Shown here piece by piece: positions 11,807-21,826 of a DNA stretch of 23,932 nt; within the stretch, counting starts at the first letter, position 1; each line of letters begins with the position of its first letter. Position numbers and translations under genes: made by a program. Origin of the DNA: Methyloglobulus sp. (GTDB lineage Bacteria > Pseudomonadota > Gammaproteobacteria > Methylococcales > Methylomonadaceae). Location of the stretch: positions 1 to 23,932 of the forward strand of contig JABFSV010000082.1 in NCBI GenBank assembly GCA_013140405.1, given 5' to 3'. The notes below the pieces were generated by a model. It saw only the letters and a program-made list of their open reading frames with translations. It was not told where the DNA came from and did no database searches.

Positions 11807-12907
11807 ATGAATTGTACTCAATCTCCATCTTTATACGGAATTACCAAATCAAACCGTATTGGAGATGATCTTTGGGGCAAAAATCAATTCAATAGCACTT
11901 TTCCTACAGCATTATGTTGTTATATGCGGGATAACAAAATACCTGCTGTATATTTAAAGCTGGTTAGTGATGCCAAAGCTCAACTTCGTGTTCAACCTGA
12001 AGAAATGTCATTTGATGAAATCTTCAATACAAAATTGGCAAATCAACAACTAACCTTTTCATTCGAGAGCAAATTTGAGCCTTACCAACAATGGGCTTAT
12101 GGAGACATCGGCAATATCGACCTGATAATTAAGCATGAAAATGAATTTTTGCGGGCATTGGAAATTAAGTTAACTGTATTGCCTGATGATGGTACGCATG
12201 AAGATGAGGAATCAAGATGGGGTTCTGAGTTGGTGGTTAGAGCTGCCACTACATCTTACGCTGCATTAGGAATTGCCCATTCTTGTATTGATGTATTACC
12301 AGAACTACGCAAATTGTTTGAACCCGTTTGCCAGCCGATTAGGAACTGGGGTAATCCAACAGAAATCAAATCTCGCAAAGATAGCATCCTAGATTGCTTA
12401 GATACCTTCCAGGCTCTTTACGCTTCACGCCAAAAACCGTTTCTAATGCAGCCTATTTGGAAAACCAAAGGTAAATCGCCAGAACTGTCAGATCATGCGT
12501 TCGATGTTTTTGTTTGGAGCGACTTTGCGTTGTGTCGGGCTTTTATTGACAGGGCGAAACATGAAACCTCAAAAAAGGCTAATGACGTGCCACGATTTCT
12601 CCGTGCTGCAACCCGTTTGGCGCATTCGTTATATGATTTATCAACGCGAGGTAAAGTTGATATGGGCGTTTACAGGGAGGACGCAATGGGTAATTTAACG
12701 GATAAAGAGTTCGCATTGGGTGGAAAAATAACCAGGAACTATATGGATCATCCTCGGAAACTTAAGCCTGCCGTTGCAAAAGAAGTTCTGCGTGAGATTA
12801 TTCTAGGCGGAGGTCAAGACAAGCTAAGCCCAGAGCGCCGTTTTGATGCTACGATCTATTTCACCGCAAAGCATTTATTTGAGGAGCTTGGCAATGAAAG
12901 CGATTGA
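11807..12907 (+). CDS. HindVP-family type II restriction endonuclease
   Basis: 366 residues, ATG 11807 after TTTTGGAGTAATAGG. It resembles the HindVP family of type II endonucleases (Haemophilus HindVP recognises GRCGYC). Family-like segments are LWGKNQFNSTFPTAL near the N-terminus, a PD-(D/E)xK core with Asp105 (GNIDLIIK) and Glu119-x-Lys121 (LEIKLTVLPD), QKPFLMQPIWKTKG, and LSPERRFDAT near the C-terminus. The last 14 bases overlap the methyltransferase start. This suggests translational coupling, and the order puts the nuclease first. Codon use looks more AT-rich than in glyA and ftfL on either side, in line with acquisition. Specificity GRCGYC is a guess from the family. The protein is full length with an intact catalytic motif. 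Confidence 0.88.
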   Translation: MNCTQSPSLYGITKSNRIGDDLWGKNQFNSTFPTALCCYMRDNKIPAVYLKLVSDAKAQLRVQPEEMSFDEIFNTKLANQQLTFSFESKFEPYQQWAYGDIGNIDLIIKHENEFLRALEIKLTVLPDDGTHEDEESRWGSELVVRAATTSYAALGIAHSCIDVLPELRKLFEPVCQPIRNWGNPTEIKSRKDSILDCLDTFQALYASRQKPFLMQPIWKTKGKSPELSDHAFDVFVWSDFALCRAFIDRAKHETSKKANDVPRFLRAATRLAHSLYDLSTRGKVDMGVYREDAMGNLTDKEFALGGKITRNYMDHPRKLKPAVAKEVLREIILGGGQDKLSPERRFDATIYFTAKHLFEELGNESD

Positions 12908-13841
12908 TTTGTTTTGTGGCGTAGGTGGGTTATCTCTTGGCTTGAAATTATCTGGGATTGACGTAATTGCGGGTATGGATAACTGGGGCCAGGCGTTATC
13001 CGTGTATCAACTGAACCATTTTCACGATGTCCTTGATATTGATCTTTCAGATGTTGATACGACTTTTAATGCTGTCGCTAATTACGAAATTGATTTGATT
13101 GCAGGTGGCCCTCCCTGCCAAGATTTTTCTCACGCAGGAAAACGAGTTGAAGGCAAAAGGGCAAACTTGACCTTAGCCTATGCAGAAATCGTGGCGAAAA
13201 TTCTTCCAAAATGGTTCATCATGGAAAATGTTGACCGTTCGCAAAATAGCGATGCTTATTCAGAAGCGCGAATAGTTTTCTGTAATGCAAATTACGGGTT
13301 AACAGAAATAGTATTAGATGCCAGTTATTGCGGCGTACCACAAAAGAGGAAACGCTTTTTTTGTATTGGAAAAAGAAATGAATCAGACGGTTTTTTATTG
13401 GAAATAATTAAATCAAAACTCTCAAAATCGCCAATGACAATAAGGCAGTACTTAGGTAATGATTTGGGCTTGTCTCATTACTATCGACATCCGCGCAATT
13501 ATTGCAGACGTGCTGTTTTTTCCATAGACGAACCTTCTCCTACAATACGTGGGGTCAATCGCCCGATACCCAAGGGCTATCCTGGTCACGCCAATGATGA
13601 GGTACCCGTAGACAGTGTGCGGCCTTTGACTACACTAGAAAGAGCGCGGCTTCAAACATTTCCAGAAAACTATGCTTGGAATGGTAACAAAACAGAGATG
13701 GAGCAATTTATTGGCAATGCGGTTCCGGTTAATCTAGCCCGCTTTGTAGGTGAATGTGTGATGATATATGAAGCAAATGAGGTTATAGGCATTAATTCAA
13801 ATGACATAAATCTTGAGCAGCGAATAAAACAATACATTTGA
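12894..13841 (+). CDS. DNA (cytosine-5-)-methyltransferase of the HindV-type system
   Basis: 315 residues from ATG 12894 (GAGGAGCTTGGCA just upstream). The longer open frame back to 12843 lies wholly within the nuclease gene and lacks family residues. C5-methyltransferase motifs appear in order: I DLFCGVGGLSLGL (5-17), IV GGPPCQDFS with catalytic Cys75, VI ENV (111-113), VIII QKRKRFF (Q150-x-R152-x-R154), a target-recognition stretch about 170-250, and IX/X with RPLTTLERARLQTFPE and IGNAVPVNLA. It overlaps the HindVP-like endonuclease by 14 bases and should protect the cognate site by methylating its cytosine. No orphan regulator (C protein) is seen. Balance probably comes from coupling and promoter strength. 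Confidence 0.95.
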   Translation: MKAIDLFCGVGGLSLGLKLSGIDVIAGMDNWGQALSVYQLNHFHDVLDIDLSDVDTTFNAVANYEIDLIAGGPPCQDFSHAGKRVEGKRANLTLAYAEIVAKILPKWFIMENVDRSQNSDAYSEARIVFCNANYGLTEIVLDASYCGVPQKRKRFFCIGKRNESDGFLLEIIKSKLSKSPMTIRQYLGNDLGLSHYYRHPRNYCRRAVFSIDEPSPTIRGVNRPIPKGYPGHANDEVPVDSVRPLTTLERARLQTFPENYAWNGNKTEMEQFIGNAVPVNLARFVGECVMIYEANEVIGINSNDINLEQRIKQYI

Positions 13842-16179: not shown

Positions 16180-16305
16180 ATGAGTGGAATTTCACTTTCT
16201 GTTCTACCTAAAACAGGCCGCGTCGCCTTAAAAGAGGACTGGCGTGGCGATTTGTTGCACAGTCTGGTTTGGCTTGTCGCTTTGCCGCAGGGATGTGAAA
16301 GATGA
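16180..16305 (+). CDS. 41-residue ORF resembling a SulP N-terminus, overlapping the SulP gene
   Basis: ATG 16180 has TTGAGG upstream and encodes 41 residues to TGA 16303-16305. The end overlaps the next start as ATGA (16302-16305), the classic arrangement for translational coupling. The C-terminal half, EDWRGDLLHSLVWLVALPQ, lines up with the first helix of SulP transporters; the second SulP in this window reads TWLGKDTMASVVVFLVALP at the same place. It may be the remnant of a deleted SulP gene or a leader peptide kept for coupling. As a free peptide it would have one membrane-prone segment. No other homology was recognised. Confidence 0.55.
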   Translation: MSGISLSVLPKTGRVALKEDWRGDLLHSLVWLVALPQGCER

Positions 16306-18014
16306 ACTTAAGCTATTTCACCGCTGAAAATATTCGCAAAGACGCTTTAGCCGGCACCATCACTGGCATGGTAGCCGTTCCGTTGACCATCGGCATTTGT
16401 CTGATGTCAGAATATCCGATACAAACAGGCTTAATTACGGTCATTTTTGCCTGTGCTATCGGTTTTATTAGCTTTCTTTTTTATCCTGGCAACTATGTCG
16501 GAACGCCGGGTGTTGCCGCCGGATTAGCGCCAGTTTTGGCGTTAGGCATCCACAAGTTTGGCATGGAGAATATGCCGTTCCTTATTTTTTTGACAGCATC
16601 TGCACAAGCCATTGCCTGGCGATACAATCTGCAAAAATATATCTTGAAAGCGATTCCAGCATATTTGATTGAGGGTCTTTTGGCAGGGATAGGCTTAAAA
16701 ATTGCCCTTAAATTTTTCCCCTATACCTACGATGTGCTGCACGTTTCTGAACAATGGCTTGATATTGAACGCATTAAAATATTGTCCATTTCGTTTGCTT
16801 CCCTGCTGTTATTTTTGTATTTGTTCACTAAATATAAAGCCTCCTATCCCGCCATACCGTATATGGTGACTATCGTTATCAGTATTGTTCTGGGGCATTA
16901 TGTGCCGTTACCCATGCTACATGAGGAAGACGTACCGTTTGTAATAGCGCCGCCTTACCCACATTTTGAACATTTTTCGCCCTTGCTGCTGGCAGAATTC
17001 GTCGGCTATGCGTTGATGCTTGCACTGATTGACGTGATTGAGCAGGTCACCAGCAATAAGGCTATCGAAAAGCTGGATCCTTTAGGGCGGCCCGCCAACA
17101 CCAATAACAGTCTGTTGTCGATTTGGATCTCCAATTTGGGTTCCAGTTTTTTTGGCGGCATGACCAATTTGGATGGCTTGGCTAAAAGTACCACGAATGC
17201 CTTGGCGGGTGCGGTAACCAAGTTGTCAAATCTGTTTACCGCATTGGTGTTATTGATTTTCGTGGTATATCCGCAACTGCTTGACCATTTGCCTGAATAT
17301 GCACTCGCCGTGCTAATGATATTTACCGGCTGGAAAATGATAGTTGGCCTGACACACGTAGCAGAACACGGAAAATACCCGTTAATCCTGGCGCTGTTTT
17401 GCGGCATCATGGTATTTGAAATAGGTATATTTGAAGGCTTGTTGATTGTGCTAATCATCCACAGCTTTGTAAACGTCACCATCGACAGGCACGAACACAA
17501 ATCAGTATTAGCCATCCTTAAAAAACTGATTCACCAATTCGCTGATGACGTTCATCCCCACAGCACGGCTACCATGCTGGTGCATAAAGATGGAGAAACG
17601 GGTGGGCTTACCTATAGCAGCATTAATAAAAATCCTGCCGACAAAAAAAATCTTAACGATTTTCTAAATGACTGGGCGTTTGGCGTTAACCGCCATAATT
17701 TGTTAACTGTCGTCGCTACTTATGATTATCAAGGTTTGTTGTGGGGAACATTTGCCAAAGAGCTGAGAGAAGGGCACACCAACATTAAGAAGTATTTTGA
17801 GCATTTGTTTGAGCTGGACAGGGTGGCTGTCCATTTTGAGACGTCTGAAGTCAGGCAATACCACGATATTTTTATTCGATCAGGTAAATACGTTTTTACC
17901 TATTACAAAAAAGAAGAACGGGTAGAAGTCCCAGCCCGATATTCCTTTGTATGCAAGAAGGAAAAAACCGGTTGGTATATTTTGGAACACCATTCTTCCG
18001 AATTTCCGCTTTAA
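16302..18014 (+). CDS. SulP-family anion transporter fused to an iota-carbonic-anhydrase-like (NTF2/CaMKII-AD fold) domain
   Basis: 570 residues. Residues about 8-395 form the SulP membrane core: KDALAGTITGMVAVPLTIGI as first helix, GNYVGTPGVAAGLAPVLALG as the substrate-site region, ALIDVIEQVTSNKAIEKLD (Glu247 region) and SNLGSSFFGGMTN. The C-terminal STAS domain is missing. Instead residues about 450-570 carry an NTF2-like domain: DWAFGVNRHNLLTVVATYDYQ, LLWGT, an IKKYFEHLF helix, SGKYVFTYY, ARYSFVCK and a terminal ILEHHSSEFP. The ARY(S/T)F and HHSS signatures are those of iota-class carbonic anhydrases. SulP C-termini are cytoplasmic, so the domain would act inside. Bicarbonate is the probable substrate by inference; sulfate cannot be excluded. 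The domain might bind rather than catalyse. It opens a cluster with an SPFH protein and a second SulP. Confidence 0.8.
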   Translation: MNLSYFTAENIRKDALAGTITGMVAVPLTIGICLMSEYPIQTGLITVIFACAIGFISFLFYPGNYVGTPGVAAGLAPVLALGIHKFGMENMPFLIFLTASAQAIAWRYNLQKYILKAIPAYLIEGLLAGIGLKIALKFFPYTYDVLHVSEQWLDIERIKILSISFASLLLFLYLFTKYKASYPAIPYMVTIVISIVLGHYVPLPMLHEEDVPFVIAPPYPHFEHFSPLLLAEFVGYALMLALIDVIEQVTSNKAIEKLDPLGRPANTNNSLLSIWISNLGSSFFGGMTNLDGLAKSTTNALAGAVTKLSNLFTALVLLIFVVYPQLLDHLPEYALAVLMIFTGWKMIVGLTHVAEHGKYPLILALFCGIMVFEIGIFEGLLIVLIIHSFVNVTIDRHEHKSVLAILKKLIHQFADDVHPHSTATMLVHKDGETGGLTYSSINKNPADKKNLNDFLNDWAFGVNRHNLLTVVATYDYQGLLWGTFAKELREGHTNIKKYFEHLFELDRVAVHFETSEVRQYHDIFIRSGKYVFTYYKKEERVEVPARYSFVCKKEKTGWYILEHHSSEFPL

Positions 18015-18053: not shown

Positions 18054-18983
18054 ATGGAAACAGTGTTTATCGTAGCGGCGGTCATTATCGCTTTATTATT
18101 GTTGAGCCTCGTATTAGTAAAACAAGGCCATATCGGCGTGGTTACCCGATTTGGGAAATACCACAGAATGATGTCGCCCGGCATTCATTTTAAATTTCCA
18201 TTCATTGATAATGTATTTAACAAAATCTCCATTCAGCATCGCTCCATTGAGCTGGAGTTTGAAGCTATTTCACTGGATCAGGCCAGTGTAAACTTCAAGT
18301 CATTGATTTTGTTTTCCGCAAAAAACTCAGACGAAGACACCATTAAAAAAATTGCGTTTCGTTTTATAGACGAAAAAAGTTTTATGCAAACCTTGATAAG
18401 GAGTATTGAAGGCTCGATTAGGGCGTTTGTGGCGACTAAAAGGCAGTCTGAAATTTTAGTCCTGAGGCAGGAAATTGTCGATGCGGTTAAAGATCATCTG
18501 GAGGACTCATTAAATCACTGGGGATTTCATTTGCTTGACTTGCAAATCAATGACATTTCCTTTGATGAAGCAATTATGCGCTCGATGTCGCAGGTTGTGT
18601 CCTCCAACAACATGAAGGCAGCGGCAGAAAACGAAGCCCAGGCGCAGTACCTGATTAAAACTAGGGCGGCAGAAGCGGAAGCGAGGTCTATACGCGTAAA
18701 AGCAGAAGCTGAACGAGATGCACTTGAGTTAAAAGGTGTCGGTAACGCGCTGTTTAGGGAGCAAGTTGCGACTGGTTTAGCAAAAGCCGGCACTATTATG
18801 GATGCGGGTGCTGTCGATCCCGCGTTAATGCTGTATACCCAGTGGCTGGATACCATGAAAAATGTGGCTGCACACAGTCATGGTAATATATTGTCGTTTG
18901 ACGGATCCAATGATGGCTTCGACAAAACCTTTAAACAAATGCAGTTGATAAACAAGAGTTTATTGGAAAAAAATACGCATTAA
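18054..18983 (+). CDS. SPFH/Band-7 (stomatin/prohibitin-like) membrane protein
   Basis: 309 residues. One N-terminal transmembrane helix (residues 4-22, VFIVAAVIIALLLLSLVLV) is followed by the SPFH domain (about 24-185: KQGHIGVVTRFGKYHRMMSPGIHFKFPFID opens it) and a long alanine/glutamate-rich coiled coil (about 186-230: AAAENEAQAQYL..., RAAEAEARSIRVKAEAER). These proteins form large ring-like membrane assemblies that organise or protect partner membrane proteins. It is 39 bp after the SulP fusion and 36 bp before the next SulP, all on one strand, so it probably scaffolds one or both transporters. The ribosome site is ACAGGAC. The exact SPFH subgroup cannot be decided by eye. Confidence 0.9.
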   Translation: METVFIVAAVIIALLLLSLVLVKQGHIGVVTRFGKYHRMMSPGIHFKFPFIDNVFNKISIQHRSIELEFEAISLDQASVNFKSLILFSAKNSDEDTIKKIAFRFIDEKSFMQTLIRSIEGSIRAFVATKRQSEILVLRQEIVDAVKDHLEDSLNHWGFHLLDLQINDISFDEAIMRSMSQVVSSNNMKAAAENEAQAQYLIKTRAAEAEARSIRVKAEAERDALELKGVGNALFREQVATGLAKAGTIMDAGAVDPALMLYTQWLDTMKNVAAHSHGNILSFDGSNDGFDKTFKQMQLINKSLLEKNTH

Positions 18984-19019: not shown

Positions 19020-20570
19020 ATGAAAGCGAAATTGCCCGATAAAACAGCTTCCAATCAATCCGGTATCAAAACCTGGTTAGGTAAAGACACGATGGCTTCC
19101 GTCGTGGTCTTTCTGGTCGCATTACCACTTTGTATGGGTGTGTCCATAGCCTCCGGCGTACCGCCGACTGCTGGTATAATCACCGGCATCGTTGGTGGAT
19201 TGGTGGTCGGTTTATTGGCTGGGTCACCCTTGCAGGTCAGTGGCCCTGCTGCGGGGCTTACCGTGCTGGTTTGGCAATTGGTTCAACAGCATGGCATAGC
19301 GATGCTTGGCATTATCGTAACGCTGGCAGGATTAATTCAGCTGGTTGCAGGTTTGCTCAAACTAGGACAATGGTTTCGTGCGGTATCCCCTGCGGTTATT
19401 CACGGTATGTTGGCTGGGATAGGCGTGTTGATTTTGTCTGCACAATTTCATGTAATGCTCGATGGTAAGCCTATTGGTAAGGGGGTTGACAATCTGCTGG
19501 CGATACCCGCCGCCTTAATGACTGCCATTTCGGCGCACGGTCAGGAATTTCAGGCGTTTGGTATCGGTATGTTCACGATTGCAGTCATCGTTTTATGGAG
19601 TGGGTTTGCACCAAAAAAACTTAAAGTGTTGCCCGGCGCATTAATCGGGGTGATAGCGGCTGTTTTGGCTGCATTTGTGCTTAAACTAGACATCCATTAT
19701 GTCAGTGTACCGGATAATATCTTGTCAGTTGTGCAGTTCCCAACTGTGGATAATCTTAAGCGCGTGTTTGAAACGCCGATCCTGATTGCAGCCGTGTCCG
19801 TGGCTTTTATTGCCAGTGCCGAATCGTTGCTATGTGCCAGTGCGGTCGATCAAATGCATCAAGGCCCGCGTACCAAATATGATAAAGAACTTGCCGCGCA
19901 GGGTGTCGGCAATGCTATTTGTGGACTATTGGGCGTGTTACCGATGACTGGCGTAATCGTGCGTTCCGGAGCTAATGTAGAGGCAGGCGCGACCACGCGC
20001 TTTTCCGCCATTATGCACGGTATGTGGCTACTGCTGTTTGTTGCGGTATTACCCTTTACGCTGGCCTATATTCCCGTGTCCAGTTTAGCGGCGATTTTGG
20101 TTTTTACCGGTTACAAGCTGGCTTACCCTAAAATCTTACCGAAGTTATTGCACTTCGGTGGAAGCGAAGTGGCAATTTACCTGTCCACTATTGTCGTCAT
20201 TGTGACGACTGATTTGCTTAAGGGCGTTGTTTTTGGCCTGTTCTTGTCAATACTTAAATTACTGTATGTGTTCACGCATCTGGAGATTCGCTTCGAAGAA
20301 AGTACGCAGCAGGGTCGGATTGATATGCGTTTAAAAGGTTCAGCCACCTTAATTCGTCTGCCTTTTCTTGCAGAAAAACTGGAACAGATCAATCGCGGCG
20401 CTGAAGTGCATGTACATTTCGAGGAGCTGGATTATATCGATCATGCTTGCCTGGATTTGCTGACCAACTGGGAAAAACAACACGAAGCCAGCGGCGGTAA
20501 TTTGGTGATTGAGTGGGAAGAGTTAACCTGGAAATACCATCAACGCCAGTCAGTGGCACAGAAAGGTTGA
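19020..20570 (+). CDS. SulP-family anion (likely bicarbonate) transporter with STAS domain
   Basis: 516 residues. The membrane core (about 20-420) begins TWLGKDTMASVVVFLVALPLCMG and includes GSPLQVSGPAAGL (69-80, the substrate-site half-helix), ASAESLLCASAVDQM (266-279), GVGNAICGLLGVLPMTGVIVRSGANVEAGA in pieces, and ATTRFSAIMHGMWLLLF. A cytoplasmic STAS domain covers about 435-502 (HVHFEELDYIDHACLDLL). The short N-terminus and compact STAS are as in BicA-like bacterial bicarbonate/Na+ carriers, but substrate cannot be read from sequence. It lacks the carbonic-anhydrase-like domain of its neighbour, so the two SulPs differ in their cytoplasmic parts. The start is ATG 19020; the ribosome site is weak. 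Confidence 0.9.
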   Translation: MKAKLPDKTASNQSGIKTWLGKDTMASVVVFLVALPLCMGVSIASGVPPTAGIITGIVGGLVVGLLAGSPLQVSGPAAGLTVLVWQLVQQHGIAMLGIIVTLAGLIQLVAGLLKLGQWFRAVSPAVIHGMLAGIGVLILSAQFHVMLDGKPIGKGVDNLLAIPAALMTAISAHGQEFQAFGIGMFTIAVIVLWSGFAPKKLKVLPGALIGVIAAVLAAFVLKLDIHYVSVPDNILSVVQFPTVDNLKRVFETPILIAAVSVAFIASAESLLCASAVDQMHQGPRTKYDKELAAQGVGNAICGLLGVLPMTGVIVRSGANVEAGATTRFSAIMHGMWLLLFVAVLPFTLAYIPVSSLAAILVFTGYKLAYPKILPKLLHFGGSEVAIYLSTIVVIVTTDLLKGVVFGLFLSILKLLYVFTHLEIRFEESTQQGRIDMRLKGSATLIRLPFLAEKLEQINRGAEVHVHFEELDYIDHACLDLLTNWEKQHEASGGNLVIEWEELTWKYHQRQSVAQKG

Positions 20571-20640: not shown

Positions 20641-21115
20641 GAGACCTTTGCAACCCCCCCGTTATTGGTTAGAACATCCGTAAAAACCAAATTACTATTG
20701 AAAAATAGGGGGGAATTTCGGCGAATCTTTGCCAAAAGTTCGTCATTACTGGCTTTATTTCACCGCTTTCCGACCACTAGGCAGGCTTTGCCTGTGGCAA
20801 CTGCGGCAACAGGCTTTCAACGTACAACCGTGGCAGCCTTTTCAGGTTATAAGCGACGGCTAGGAGAACATGCCAAGCGTGGGACTTGGCTAATCCTTGG
20901 TAACGCAGGGTCTTGCCACCAAACCAGCGCTGTTGGCTGCCAAAGGTGCGTTCCACCACAAAGCGCACTTTGCTGATCGCCGAGTTGCGGGCCAGTTGGT
21001 GTGAGCCCAGTGGCTTGTTCTTGACGGCCTTGCCTTGGATGCCGTTTTTAATGCCCCGTTCTTTCAAGGCCGCCCGATGCTTCTTGCTGCAATACGCCTT
21101 GTCAGCGTGGACACG
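20641..21115 (-). mobile_element. IS5-family insertion sequence remnant (one end plus transposase C-terminus)
   Basis: The outer end begins with GAGACCTTTGCAA at 20641-20653, the terminal repeat type of many IS5-family elements. The element runs rightward to about 21115, where the sequence switches abruptly to SulP coding sequence. The other end, with the transposase N-terminus, is missing. The remnant can no longer move by itself. Confidence 0.75.
20777..21115 (-). pseudogene. IS5-family transposase, C-terminal fragment
   Basis: About 113 residues ending at TAG (20777-20779) match the C-terminal third of IS5-family DDE transposases: RVHADKAYCSKKHRAALKE (the second Asp region), then KVRFVVERTFGSQQRWFGG with the catalytic Glu and the R..E/Y-type spacing, and HAWHVLLAVAYNLKRL. 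The first catalytic Asp and the whole N-terminal part are absent. The frame continues upstream (to 21211) only by reading the SulP gene antisense. Truncated and inactive. Confidence 0.85.
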
Positions 21116-21826
21116 GGTTTGGTCGGTGGCTTGCCGATGATTGCTGAGATTGTGCGGAGTTCTGCCAACGCCAACAATGGCGCAAAAACCAGTTGGGCCA
21201 ACTTTTTTCATGGTTGTTTGCTGTTATTGTTCGTCGTATTTTTTCCGCGCTTGATACACAGCATTCCGTTAGCAGCGTTAGCGGCATTATTAGTTTTTAC
21301 TGGCTTTAGGCTGGCTTCGCCTAAAGCATTTTCCACTGTCATGGGGATTGGAAAAGAGCAGTTGTTTATGTTCGTGGTCACCATTATTGGTGTGTTAGCA
21401 ACTGACTTATTAGTGGGGGTGGTGATTGGTATTCTGACTAAGTTTACAATTCACATGCTGCGGGGTGTCAGGTTGAATAATCTGTTCAAAATTCATTTCC
21501 TTGTTGAACAGATCAATGGCGAGACCATTTTGGTAGAAATAGTTGGTGCGGCAATCTTTTCTAACTTTATGGCCTTAAAAAACGCCATCACTCAGATTGC
21601 ACCAGCCAAAAAAGTTGTCTTTCAATTAAATAATGCGTATCTGATTGATCATACCGTCATGGAATTCATGCACAATTTTCGGCACACCTATGAAGCAAAT
21701 GGTGGTGTCTGTGAATTTCTTGGAATGGAAGTGCACGATACGTTTTCAAAGCATCCTTTGGCGGTGCGTAAAATGAAACCAGACAATAAGAGCCGGCGAA
21801 AAACCGATTATCACGGTTTGCGTTAA
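21116..21826 (+). pseudogene. Third SulP transporter, C-terminal half (5' part deleted at the IS junction)
   Basis: From codon 21116 the frame reads GLVGGLPMIAEIVRSSANAN, which lines up with GLLGVLPMTGVIVRSGANVE of the intact SulP just upstream (from its residue 302). It continues through the last membrane helices (LAALLVFTGFRLASP, LFMFVVTIIGVLATDLLVGVV) and a STAS-like domain (KVVFQLNNAYLIDHTVMEF) to TAA 21824-21826. About 300 N-terminal residues, including the substrate site, are missing, replaced by the IS5 remnant. An ATG at 21035 inside the IS would give a 263-residue chimera in the same frame. Sequence drift shows it was a distinct paralogue rather than a recent copy. Not expected to transport; whether the STAS part is still made is unknown. 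Confidence 0.85.

What the first reader, a model, noticed from the sequence alone, without database searches (positions are those of the whole stretch)
16302..18014. SulP transporter whose STAS domain is replaced by an iota-carbonic-anhydrase-like domain
Seen: a SulP core ends near residue 395, and residues about 450-570 show an NTF2-like pattern with SGKYVFTYY, ARYSFVCK and a terminal HHSS (563-566). Known: iota-class carbonic anhydrases have the CaMKII-association/NTF2 fold and conserve ARY(T/S)F and HHSS; SulP fusions to beta-type carbonic anhydrases have been described before. Inference: this is an iota-type counterpart, a transporter with a built-in bicarbonate/CO2 converter on the cytoplasmic side, in a C1-assimilating organism that needs bicarbonate for PEP carboxylase and other carboxylations.
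Basis: partly seen in the sequence, partly recalled or inferred. Interest (0 to 1): 0.88.

Follow-up and report, generated by a model that had tools for sequence, protein, structure and literature searches.

The report
Transporter fused to iota-type carbonic anhydrase
A membrane anion transporter of a methane-eating bacterium carries, in place of its usual tail, a domain that looks like a recently recognised type of carbonic anhydrase, so one protein may both convert CO2 to bicarbonate and carry bicarbonate across the membrane; the same fusion occurs in several bacterial phyla, and its activity has yet to be tested.

Summary
ORF 16302-18014 is a 570-residue SulP transporter (Pfam Sulfate_transp, 3e-28) with a CaMKII_AD domain (1e-8) where STAS usually sits. 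A family profile of that domain finds 3H51 (5e-31) and the solved "iota-carbonic anhydrase" 7C5X (5e-11 summed over three weak repeats), HHSS aligned. The residues matching those that iota-CA needs (T483, Y498, H564, S566) are kept in 121 of 121 rows (window protein twice, 119 homologues). The domain model (pLDDT 90.5) is NTF2-like; Foldseek ranks 3H51 first.

Of 80 named loci kept, 32 carry the fusion (Verrucomicrobiota 11, Planctomycetota 9, Bacteroidota 8, others 4). It was not found in 40 near relatives. STAS-less sister transporters without the domain lie near other CO2-hydrating enzymes in 22 of 48 loci, the best evidence that the cargo is inorganic carbon. An SPFH gene follows the fusion in 17 of 32 loci and here.

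Against: Bacteroidota versions lose catalytic residues; BicA's contact residues are mostly absent; no PEP carboxylase or RuBisCO was found in this genome; the domain resembles the iota-CA group reported with metals. Activity, substrate and direction are untested. SulP fusions to beta-CA are known, so this is a new variant of a known kind; my searches listed no paper describing it.

The parts
16302..18014 (+). SulP transporter - iota-CA-like (CaMKII_AD) fusion protein, 570 aa
16302..17486 (+). SulP/SLC26 membrane core, residues 1-395, about 14 helices in a moderate-confidence model; no STAS domain follows
   Evidence: Pfam PF00916 12-353; model pLDDT 69.5; Foldseek top SLC26Dg, BicA membrane domain also listed
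17487..17642 (+). linker, residues 396-447, more variable than the core or the domain
   Evidence: mean column entropy 1.61 bits against 0.94 for the core and 0.83 for the domain
17643..18005 (+). CaMKII_AD / iota-CA-like NTF2 domain, residues 448-568
17748..17750 (+). T483, matched with the essential Thr of iota-CA (T106 of all2909)
   Evidence: matched through 3H51; 121 of 121 rows; essential role from passages of PMC8132391
17793..17795 (+). Y498, matched with the essential Tyr (Y124 of all2909)
   Evidence: as T483; Thr-Tyr spacing 15 here against 17-18 in COG4337 numbering
17988..17999 (+). HHSS 563-566; H564 and S566 match H197 and S199 of all2909
18054..18983 (+). SPFH / Band_7 membrane protein (HflK/stomatin-like), 309 aa, 39 bp downstream; likely partner in the same operon
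   Evidence: Pfam 1.7e-31; same protein group in 17 of 32 fusion loci and 0 of 48 sister loci
19020..20570 (+). second SulP transporter, with a weak C-terminal STAS_2 match, 516 aa, 36 bp after the SPFH gene
   Evidence: Pfam 2.8e-59; STAS_2 1.4e-5, below its cut-off; an extra SulP-family gene near the fusion also in 7 of 32 fusion loci
16180..16305 (+). 41-aa remnant: N-terminus of a native SulP gene; its stop overlaps the fusion start as ATGA
   Evidence: 62% identical over 37 columns to the start of the SulP in L086; overlap read
21083..21826 (+). remnant: C-terminal part of the same kind of native SulP
   Evidence: 65-69% identical to L086 and L085; Pfam Sulfate_transp 2.2e-14, STAS only weakly (0.007, below its cut-off)

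Best explanation
The protein is a self-contained bicarbonate 'transport metabolon'. A STAS-less SulP core, probably dimeric, moves an inorganic-carbon anion, most likely HCO3-, through the inner membrane. An iota-type carbonic anhydrase domain, on the cytoplasmic side by homology to BicA, interconverts CO2 and HCO3- at the inner mouth of the transporter with Thr483, Tyr498, His564 and Ser566 as its working set; whether a metal takes part is open. The domain may also replace STAS as the cytoplasmic dimer contact, and the neighbouring SPFH protein probably scaffolds the assembly. The likely benefit is supply and retention of bicarbonate for housekeeping carboxylations and pH control, not RuBisCO-based CO2 concentration. 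Shown here: the architecture, conserved pocket residues, predicted fold, conserved SPFH linkage, and linkage of the sister transporters to CO2-hydrating enzymes. Inferred: catalysis, HCO3- as cargo, cytoplasmic side, dimer role, direction. I lean slightly (about 55:45) to net import or retention of bicarbonate over export of CO2 as bicarbonate.
For: CaMKII_AD over its cut-off. Family profile hits 3H51 at 5.1e-31 and the solved iota-CA 7C5X at 4.9e-11, HHSS aligned. T, Y, H, S kept in 121 of 121 rows, two of them the window's own protein; the domain is about as conserved as the core (0.83 against 0.94 bits; ARYSFVCK 0.015, EHHSS 0.042). The same four residues are in all 13 apparently stand-alone relatives of A3. 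Domain model pLDDT 90.5, Foldseek first hit 3H51. The four residues are essential in all2909 (in Bn86287 two are essential and two lower activity), and the pocket is called mostly conserved in 3H51 (passages of PMC8132391). Sister SulPs without the domain lie near alpha-CA (3), CDCA (5), CsoSCA-like (7), DabA (5) or beta-CA (2) in 22 of 48 loci, against 4 of 32 fusion loci (Fisher p 0.003, loci not independent). A DabA gene and a DabB-like gene lie upstream of the fusion in L006. SulP-betaCA fusions lie within 6 kb in L009 and L013. DabA is in 13 of 32 carrier genomes (controls 2 of 14) and in this one.
Against: No activity or transport data. All eight Bacteroidota rows depart from the T/Y/H/S set (T to A in five, T to S in two, Y to L in three, the His lost in two) yet keep the fusion, so the domain can persist with an altered pocket. 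BicA's HCO3-/Na+ contact residues are not kept, apart from an acidic residue at D258 (my reading of a weak alignment with the list). The genome already has three beta-CA matches and shows no RuBisCO or PEP carboxylase. The 7C5X match is a sum of three repeats, each weak alone (i-Evalue 0.12-1.4) and covering only the C-terminal half; with profile A2 two designed NTF2 proteins rank above 7C5X. COG4337 iota-CAs showed no dehydration, which fits bicarbonate import followed by CO2 release badly, though this domain is nearer to 3H51 than to COG4337. NTF2 folds serve many functions and putative KSIs tie with 3H51 by Z. Pocket geometry was not measured.
Confidence: 0.66

Rival explanations
1. The domain is a non-catalytic or barely catalytic regulatory and dimerisation module. 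It binds HCO3- (or only holds the dimer together in place of STAS) and gates the transporter according to inorganic carbon level.
For: It sits where STAS sits. STAS is reported essential for BicA transport and dimerisation (PMC13249358); COG4337 proteins and 3H51 show dimeric structures, all2909 being tetrameric in solution (PMC8132391). Bacteroidota versions keep the fusion with altered T, Y or H.
Against: Outside Bacteroidota the full catalytic set is kept: 24 of 24 rows and 121 of 121. Sister transporters sit beside known classes of CO2-hydrating enzymes.
Confidence: 0.18
2. The core carries some other anion (sulfate, chloride, formate or another C1 acid) in exchange for HCO3-. The CA domain makes the counter-ion, so bicarbonate leaves the cell and CO2 disposal or pH control is the point.
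For: BicA contact residues are mostly not conserved. Iota-CA of the COG4337 type is reported to hydrate only. The host has methane monooxygenase genes and so should make much CO2 (inference). The gene lies beside C1 genes.
Against: The linkage of sister transporters, mostly of ammonia and nitrite oxidisers by name, to DabA and several CA classes points to carbon supply. Carriers include many lineages not named as C1 users.
Confidence: 0.11
3. The domain is a SnoaL/ketosteroid-isomerase-like enzyme acting on another small molecule.
Against: CaMKII_AD scores higher. HHSS and the T/Y/H/S set are conserved. Profile hits are led by 3H51 and 7C5X, with KSIs at E 1e-4 or weaker. Bacterial iota-CAs were themselves annotated SgcJ/EcaC (PMC8425729).
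Confidence: 0.05

Closest known systems
SulP - beta-carbonic-anhydrase fusions (Felce and Saier 2004; seen here only as a citation, in PMC11423575, PMC10219603, PMC10350532, PMC6458275 and PMC12596568)
   Same: SulP core with a carbonic anhydrase at the C-terminus; three examples found here, in L009, L013 and L074
   Different: Those three carry Pro_CA (beta-CA, a zinc enzyme of unrelated fold by general knowledge) in frames of 749-831 aa; here the CA-like domain is iota-type, on a STAS-less SulP subfamily
Iota-class carbonic anhydrases (LCIP63, BteCA-iota, COG4337 all2909/Bn86287) and Xanthomonas 3H51
   Same: CaMKII_AD/NTF2 domain, Thr/Tyr/His/Ser set, HHSS near the C-terminus; Thr-Tyr spacing of 15 as I read it in 3H51
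   Different: Prokaryotic ones are described as single-domain proteins with predicted signal peptides (PMC8132391), two bacterial two-domain cases apart (PMC6776030); here the domain is tied to a transporter and faces the cytoplasm by homology
BicA, the cyanobacterial SulP bicarbonate transporter
   Same: SulP membrane fold
   Different: BicA has STAS; its contact residues are mostly not conserved here
DAB complex (vectorial CO2 hydration, PMC13144422)
   Same: A membrane protein coupled to a cytoplasmic CO2-hydrating part; DabA genes lie near five sister SulPs and one fusion
   Different: DAB pairs a beta-CA-like subunit with a proton-conducting NuoL-like subunit, not a SulP

Membership tests
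SulP/SLC26 transporter | Sulfate_transp membrane domain | tested here: met
   PF00916 E 3.3e-28 over cut-off; SLC26 folds by Foldseek
SulP/SLC26 transporter | C-terminal STAS domain (typical, not universal) | tested here: not met
   no STAS hit up to E 0.01; CaMKII_AD instead. The 48 sister SulPs (frames 424-553 aa, median 456) also mostly end soon after the core
Iota-class carbonic anhydrase | CaMKII_AD / NTF2-like fold | tested here: met
   PF08332 over cut-off; model pLDDT 90.5, Foldseek first hit 3H51 E 3.1e-11
Iota-class carbonic anhydrase | C-terminal (H)HHSS motif | tested here: met
   EHHSS 562-566; HHSS in 121 of 121 rows
Iota-class carbonic anhydrase | Thr, Tyr, His, Ser set needed for activity | tested here: met
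   T483, Y498, H564, S566 by sequence alignment through 3H51; set altered in 8 of 8 Bacteroidota rows
Iota-class carbonic anhydrase | pocket geometry as in the solved bicarbonate and iodide complexes 7C5V-7C5Y | not testable with these tools
   I had no model coordinates to measure; the 7C5 entries were not among the listed fold rows
Iota-class carbonic anhydrase | CO2 hydration activity | not testable with these tools
   needs an assay
Metal-free (COG4337) iota-CA subgroup | insertion said to mark the metal-free members (PMC8425729) | tested here: inconclusive
   Thr-Tyr spacing is 15 in 32 of 33 A3 rows against 17-18 by the residue numbers, so this insertion may be lacking; I could not see where the review places it
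SulP-CA fusion bicarbonate transporters | SulP core joined to a carbonic anhydrase domain | tested here: met
   met in architecture, with an iota-like domain instead of beta; activity of either half untested
BicA-type bicarbonate transporter | HCO3-/Na+ contact residues T69, D258, T262, G300, A301, T302 | tested here: not met
   aligned to G70, E247, S251, D291, G292, L293 by my reading of a weak alignment; residue list
Ketosteroid isomerase / SnoaL enzymes | best sequence match to that group rather than CaMKII_AD | tested here: not met
   CaMKII_AD 35.8 bits against SnoaL_3 26.5; 3H51 and 7C5X rank above all KSIs by profile. By fold alone it is a tie

The most novel reading that the evidence does not exclude
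A widespread family of one-polypeptide machines couples CO2 hydration by an iota-type, perhaps metal-free and perhaps hydration-only, carbonic anhydrase directly to bicarbonate flux through the fused SulP core, held in an SPFH membrane scaffold. This would be a counterpart, without zinc chemistry, of the DAB 'vectorial' CO2-hydration complexes, used by bacteria without RuBisCO to hold or route inorganic carbon.
Probability: 0.18. Interest if true: 0.82.

Novelty: new variant of a known kind. Interest (0 to 1): 0.63.

Why it matters
It would join the most recently described carbonic anhydrase class, part of which is reported to work without metal, to a transporter in one chain. That would make it testable with a single protein whether iota-CAs work with transporters, and in which direction. 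It gives a likely function to a SulP subfamily spread over several phyla that the sources name only as a permease or anion transporter, and predicts an inorganic-carbon module in bacteria in which no RuBisCO was found (0 of 32 carrier genomes). Such a CA-transporter could also be useful for engineering bicarbonate uptake.

Tried and rejected
Assembly artefact: rejected, because the same fusion at 88% identity is on another Methylococcaceae contig and in many lineages. Two genes read through: rejected, one open frame with no internal stop.

RuBisCO-type CO2 concentration: no RuBisCO large chain found in this genome or in 32 carrier genomes (0 of 32; the control rang in 5 of 14), so set aside; many are draft genomes. 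PEP carboxylase rationale: PF00311 not found in this genome (control 7 of 14); it could lie in the missing part.

Metal-free reading: the domain's best relative 3H51 is 38-42% identical to iota-CAs reported with Mn or Zn, and the Thr-Tyr spacing is 15, not 17-18.

Literature: nine searches were run. Eight bear on the fusion; one search was on BicA. By titles and abstract beginnings, none of the papers listed describes a SulP fused to an iota-type, CaMKII_AD or SnoaL domain. Some lists were capped (15: 25 of 34; 18: 30 of 877; 69: 25 of 67; 74: 15 of 21) and the library is open-access PubMed Central only. Passages, not whole texts, were seen in PMC8132391, PMC8425729, PMC6776030, PMC8395977, PMC11423575, PMC6458275, PMC10350532, PMC10219603, PMC13249358, PMC13144422, PMC13159521, PMC9716671 and PMC12596568. 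Felce and Saier 2004 was seen only as a citation.

Full report
What is there. The window lies in a 3.39 Mb, 545-contig draft genome (90.6% complete, 5.0% contamination) with two methane/ammonia monooxygenase subunit matches. The genes around the finding suit C1 metabolism: methylene-H4MPT dehydrogenase, a MOFRL (glycerate-kinase-like by recall) protein, SHMT and formate-THF ligase. ORF 16302-18014 encodes 570 residues. Residues 12-353 match Sulfate_transp (3.3e-28) and 448-568 match CaMKII_AD (1.1e-8, over the curated cut-off). SnoaL_3 is second (9.1e-6) and no STAS hit appears.

Is the domain iota-CA-like? A single-sequence search of the PDB gives 3H51, a Xanthomonas CaMKII_AD protein, at 4.4e-10 for the domain. 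Profiles of the family give 3H51 at 1.5e-23 and 5.1e-31. The chain named iota-carbonic anhydrase (7C5X) comes at 2.8e-4, below two designed NTF2 proteins, and at 4.9e-11, second, with its three HHSS ends aligned. That score sums three repeats, each weak alone (i-Evalue 0.12-1.4) and aligned only in the C-terminal half. In passages of PMC8132391, Thr106, Tyr124, His197 and Ser199 of all2909 are needed for CO2 hydration without metal, and the pocket is said to be mostly conserved in 3H51. The matching residues here are T483, Y498, H564 and S566; the Thr and Tyr were matched through 3H51. The spacing between Thr and Tyr is 15 (32 of 33 rows), against 17-18 by the residue numbers of the COG4337 enzymes. 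3H51 is reported 38-42% identical to the diatom and Burkholderia iota-CAs, which were reported with Mn or Zn. The domain therefore looks nearer to the COG4875-type iota-CAs, and metal independence should not be assumed.

Conservation. In the window protein and the 120 listed homologues (1279 passed the threshold; 120 are listed), T483, Y498, H564 and S566 are each kept in 121 of 121 rows; two of the 121 (P0001 and P0002) are the window's own protein. Mean column entropy is 0.83 bits in the domain, 0.94 in the core and 1.61 in the linker. Among 32 rows from the window and 31 named-contig loci (L013 dropped because its frame is broken), 24 have the full set. The eight departures are the eight Bacteroidota loci: L025, L027-L030, L035, L041 and L071. 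Thirteen apparently stand-alone relatives (117-206 aa), some starting with what I read as a signal sequence, keep all four residues.

Distribution. A genome-contig scan seeded on two transporter-core motifs, not on the domain, found 187 relatives, of which 80 were kept: 32 with the domain and 48 without. By record titles the carriers are Verrucomicrobiota (11), Planctomycetota (9), Bacteroidota (8), and one each of Methylococcaceae, Candidatus Peregrinibacteria, Pseudobacteriovorax and an unassigned proteobacterium. The window groups with L002 and next with Verrucomicrobiota. In 40 relatives from the genus, family and order the best match to the whole protein has E 1.8e-24, against 0 for the window itself; listed matches reach at most 37% identity and none reaches the domain (its match list was cut, its table of best scores was not). 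Seven of seven other genomes of the genus lack a CaMKII_AD match. In the class, 26 of 369 sampled genomes hold a relative of the domain; the window's lies in a 571-residue frame, the others in frames of 122-228. Horizontal acquisition is the simplest reading.

Neighbourhood. An SPFH gene follows the fusion in the window (39 bp) and in 17 of 32 fusion loci, but in none of the 48 domain-less loci and none of the eight Bacteroidota ones. A second SulP-family gene lies near the fusion in 7 of 32 loci and in the window. The domain-less sisters, mainly of Nitrosomonas, Nitrosospira and Nitrospira, have within the fetched flanks an alpha-CA (3), a cadmium-type CDCA (5), a CsoSCA-like protein (7), DabA (5) or a beta-CA (2): 22 of 48 loci, against 4 of 32 fusion loci. 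One to two members per protein group were scanned with Pfam and the rest were assigned by phmmer. The CsoSCA-like group is the weakest call: the L038 copy gave no Pfam family at 1e-4 but a PDB match at 1.5e-4, and the L045 copy matches CsoSCA_cat at 4.9e-5, over its cut-off. The loci are related and many flanks are truncated, so the p value of 0.003 is only a guide. The variety of enzyme classes is the stronger point: the same kind of transporter is repeatedly found near some CO2-hydrating enzyme, and here that place is filled in cis. In L006 a DabA gene and a Proton_antipo_M (DabB-like) gene lie upstream, the latter ending about 0.4 kb before the fusion. In L009 and L013 a SulP-betaCA fusion lies within 6 kb.

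Mechanism. By homology to BicA, whose N- and C-termini are cytoplasmic (PMC13249358), the domain faces the cytoplasm. STAS is reported to be needed for BicA dimerisation and transport, and COG4337 proteins and 3H51 show dimeric structures, so the domain could fill both roles. This is inference. Cargo: HCO3- is inferred from the neighbours. BicA's contact residues are mostly not conserved, so Na+ coupling should not be assumed. Direction: COG4337 enzymes were reported to hydrate but not dehydrate, which would favour making bicarbonate inside the cell, for retention or for export; it is unknown whether this holds for the present group. Role: no RuBisCO was found in this genome or in 32 carriers and no PEP carboxylase here, so the need is more likely general carboxylations and pH. 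DabA is present here and in 13 of 32 carriers.

Known or new. SulP-betaCA fusions and SulP-CA gene pairs are known (citations and passages). Prokaryotic iota-CAs are described as single-domain proteins with predicted signal peptides (two two-domain bacterial cases). Eight literature searches on the subject listed no SulP-iota-CA fusion by title or abstract beginning (some lists capped). I therefore rate it a new variant of a known kind. [quoted passage not shown]

Noticed in passing
window 16180-16305 and 21083-21826: N- and C-terminal pieces of one kind of native SulP gene (both closest, outside the window's own copies, to L086 and L085) flank the fusion-SPFH-SulP operon, as if an acquired cassette had replaced the middle of a resident SulP gene.
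   Followed up: partly
window 20777-21211, minus strand: Transposase-like remnant (I read it as IS5-like from recall; no call names it) between the second SulP and the SulP C-terminal piece.
   Followed up: no
window 11807-13841: HindVP-type restriction endonuclease and C5-cytosine methylase lie between the SHMT and formate-THF ligase genes.
   Followed up: no
L038:3770-4822 and L039, L045, L046, L055, L058, L072: A roughly 350-aa protein weakly like the carboxysome shell carbonic anhydrase (PDB 1.5e-4 for L038; Pfam CsoSCA_cat 4.9e-5 for L045; no Pfam hit at 1e-4 for L038), in several loci beside NuoL/M-like genes, near a STAS-less SulP; possibly another inorganic-carbon module.
   Followed up: partly
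L027-L030, L035, L041, L071: Bacteroidota SulP fusions keep the NTF2 domain but have Ala or Ser for the key Thr and in three rows Leu for the Tyr; natural candidates for a non-catalytic version.
   Followed up: partly
L032, L036, L044, L047, L067: Cadmium-type carbonic anhydrase (CDCA, Pfam 4.1e-48 for the L032 copy) near a STAS-less SulP in Nitrosomonas-type genomes, a class best known from diatoms (recalled).
   Followed up: no
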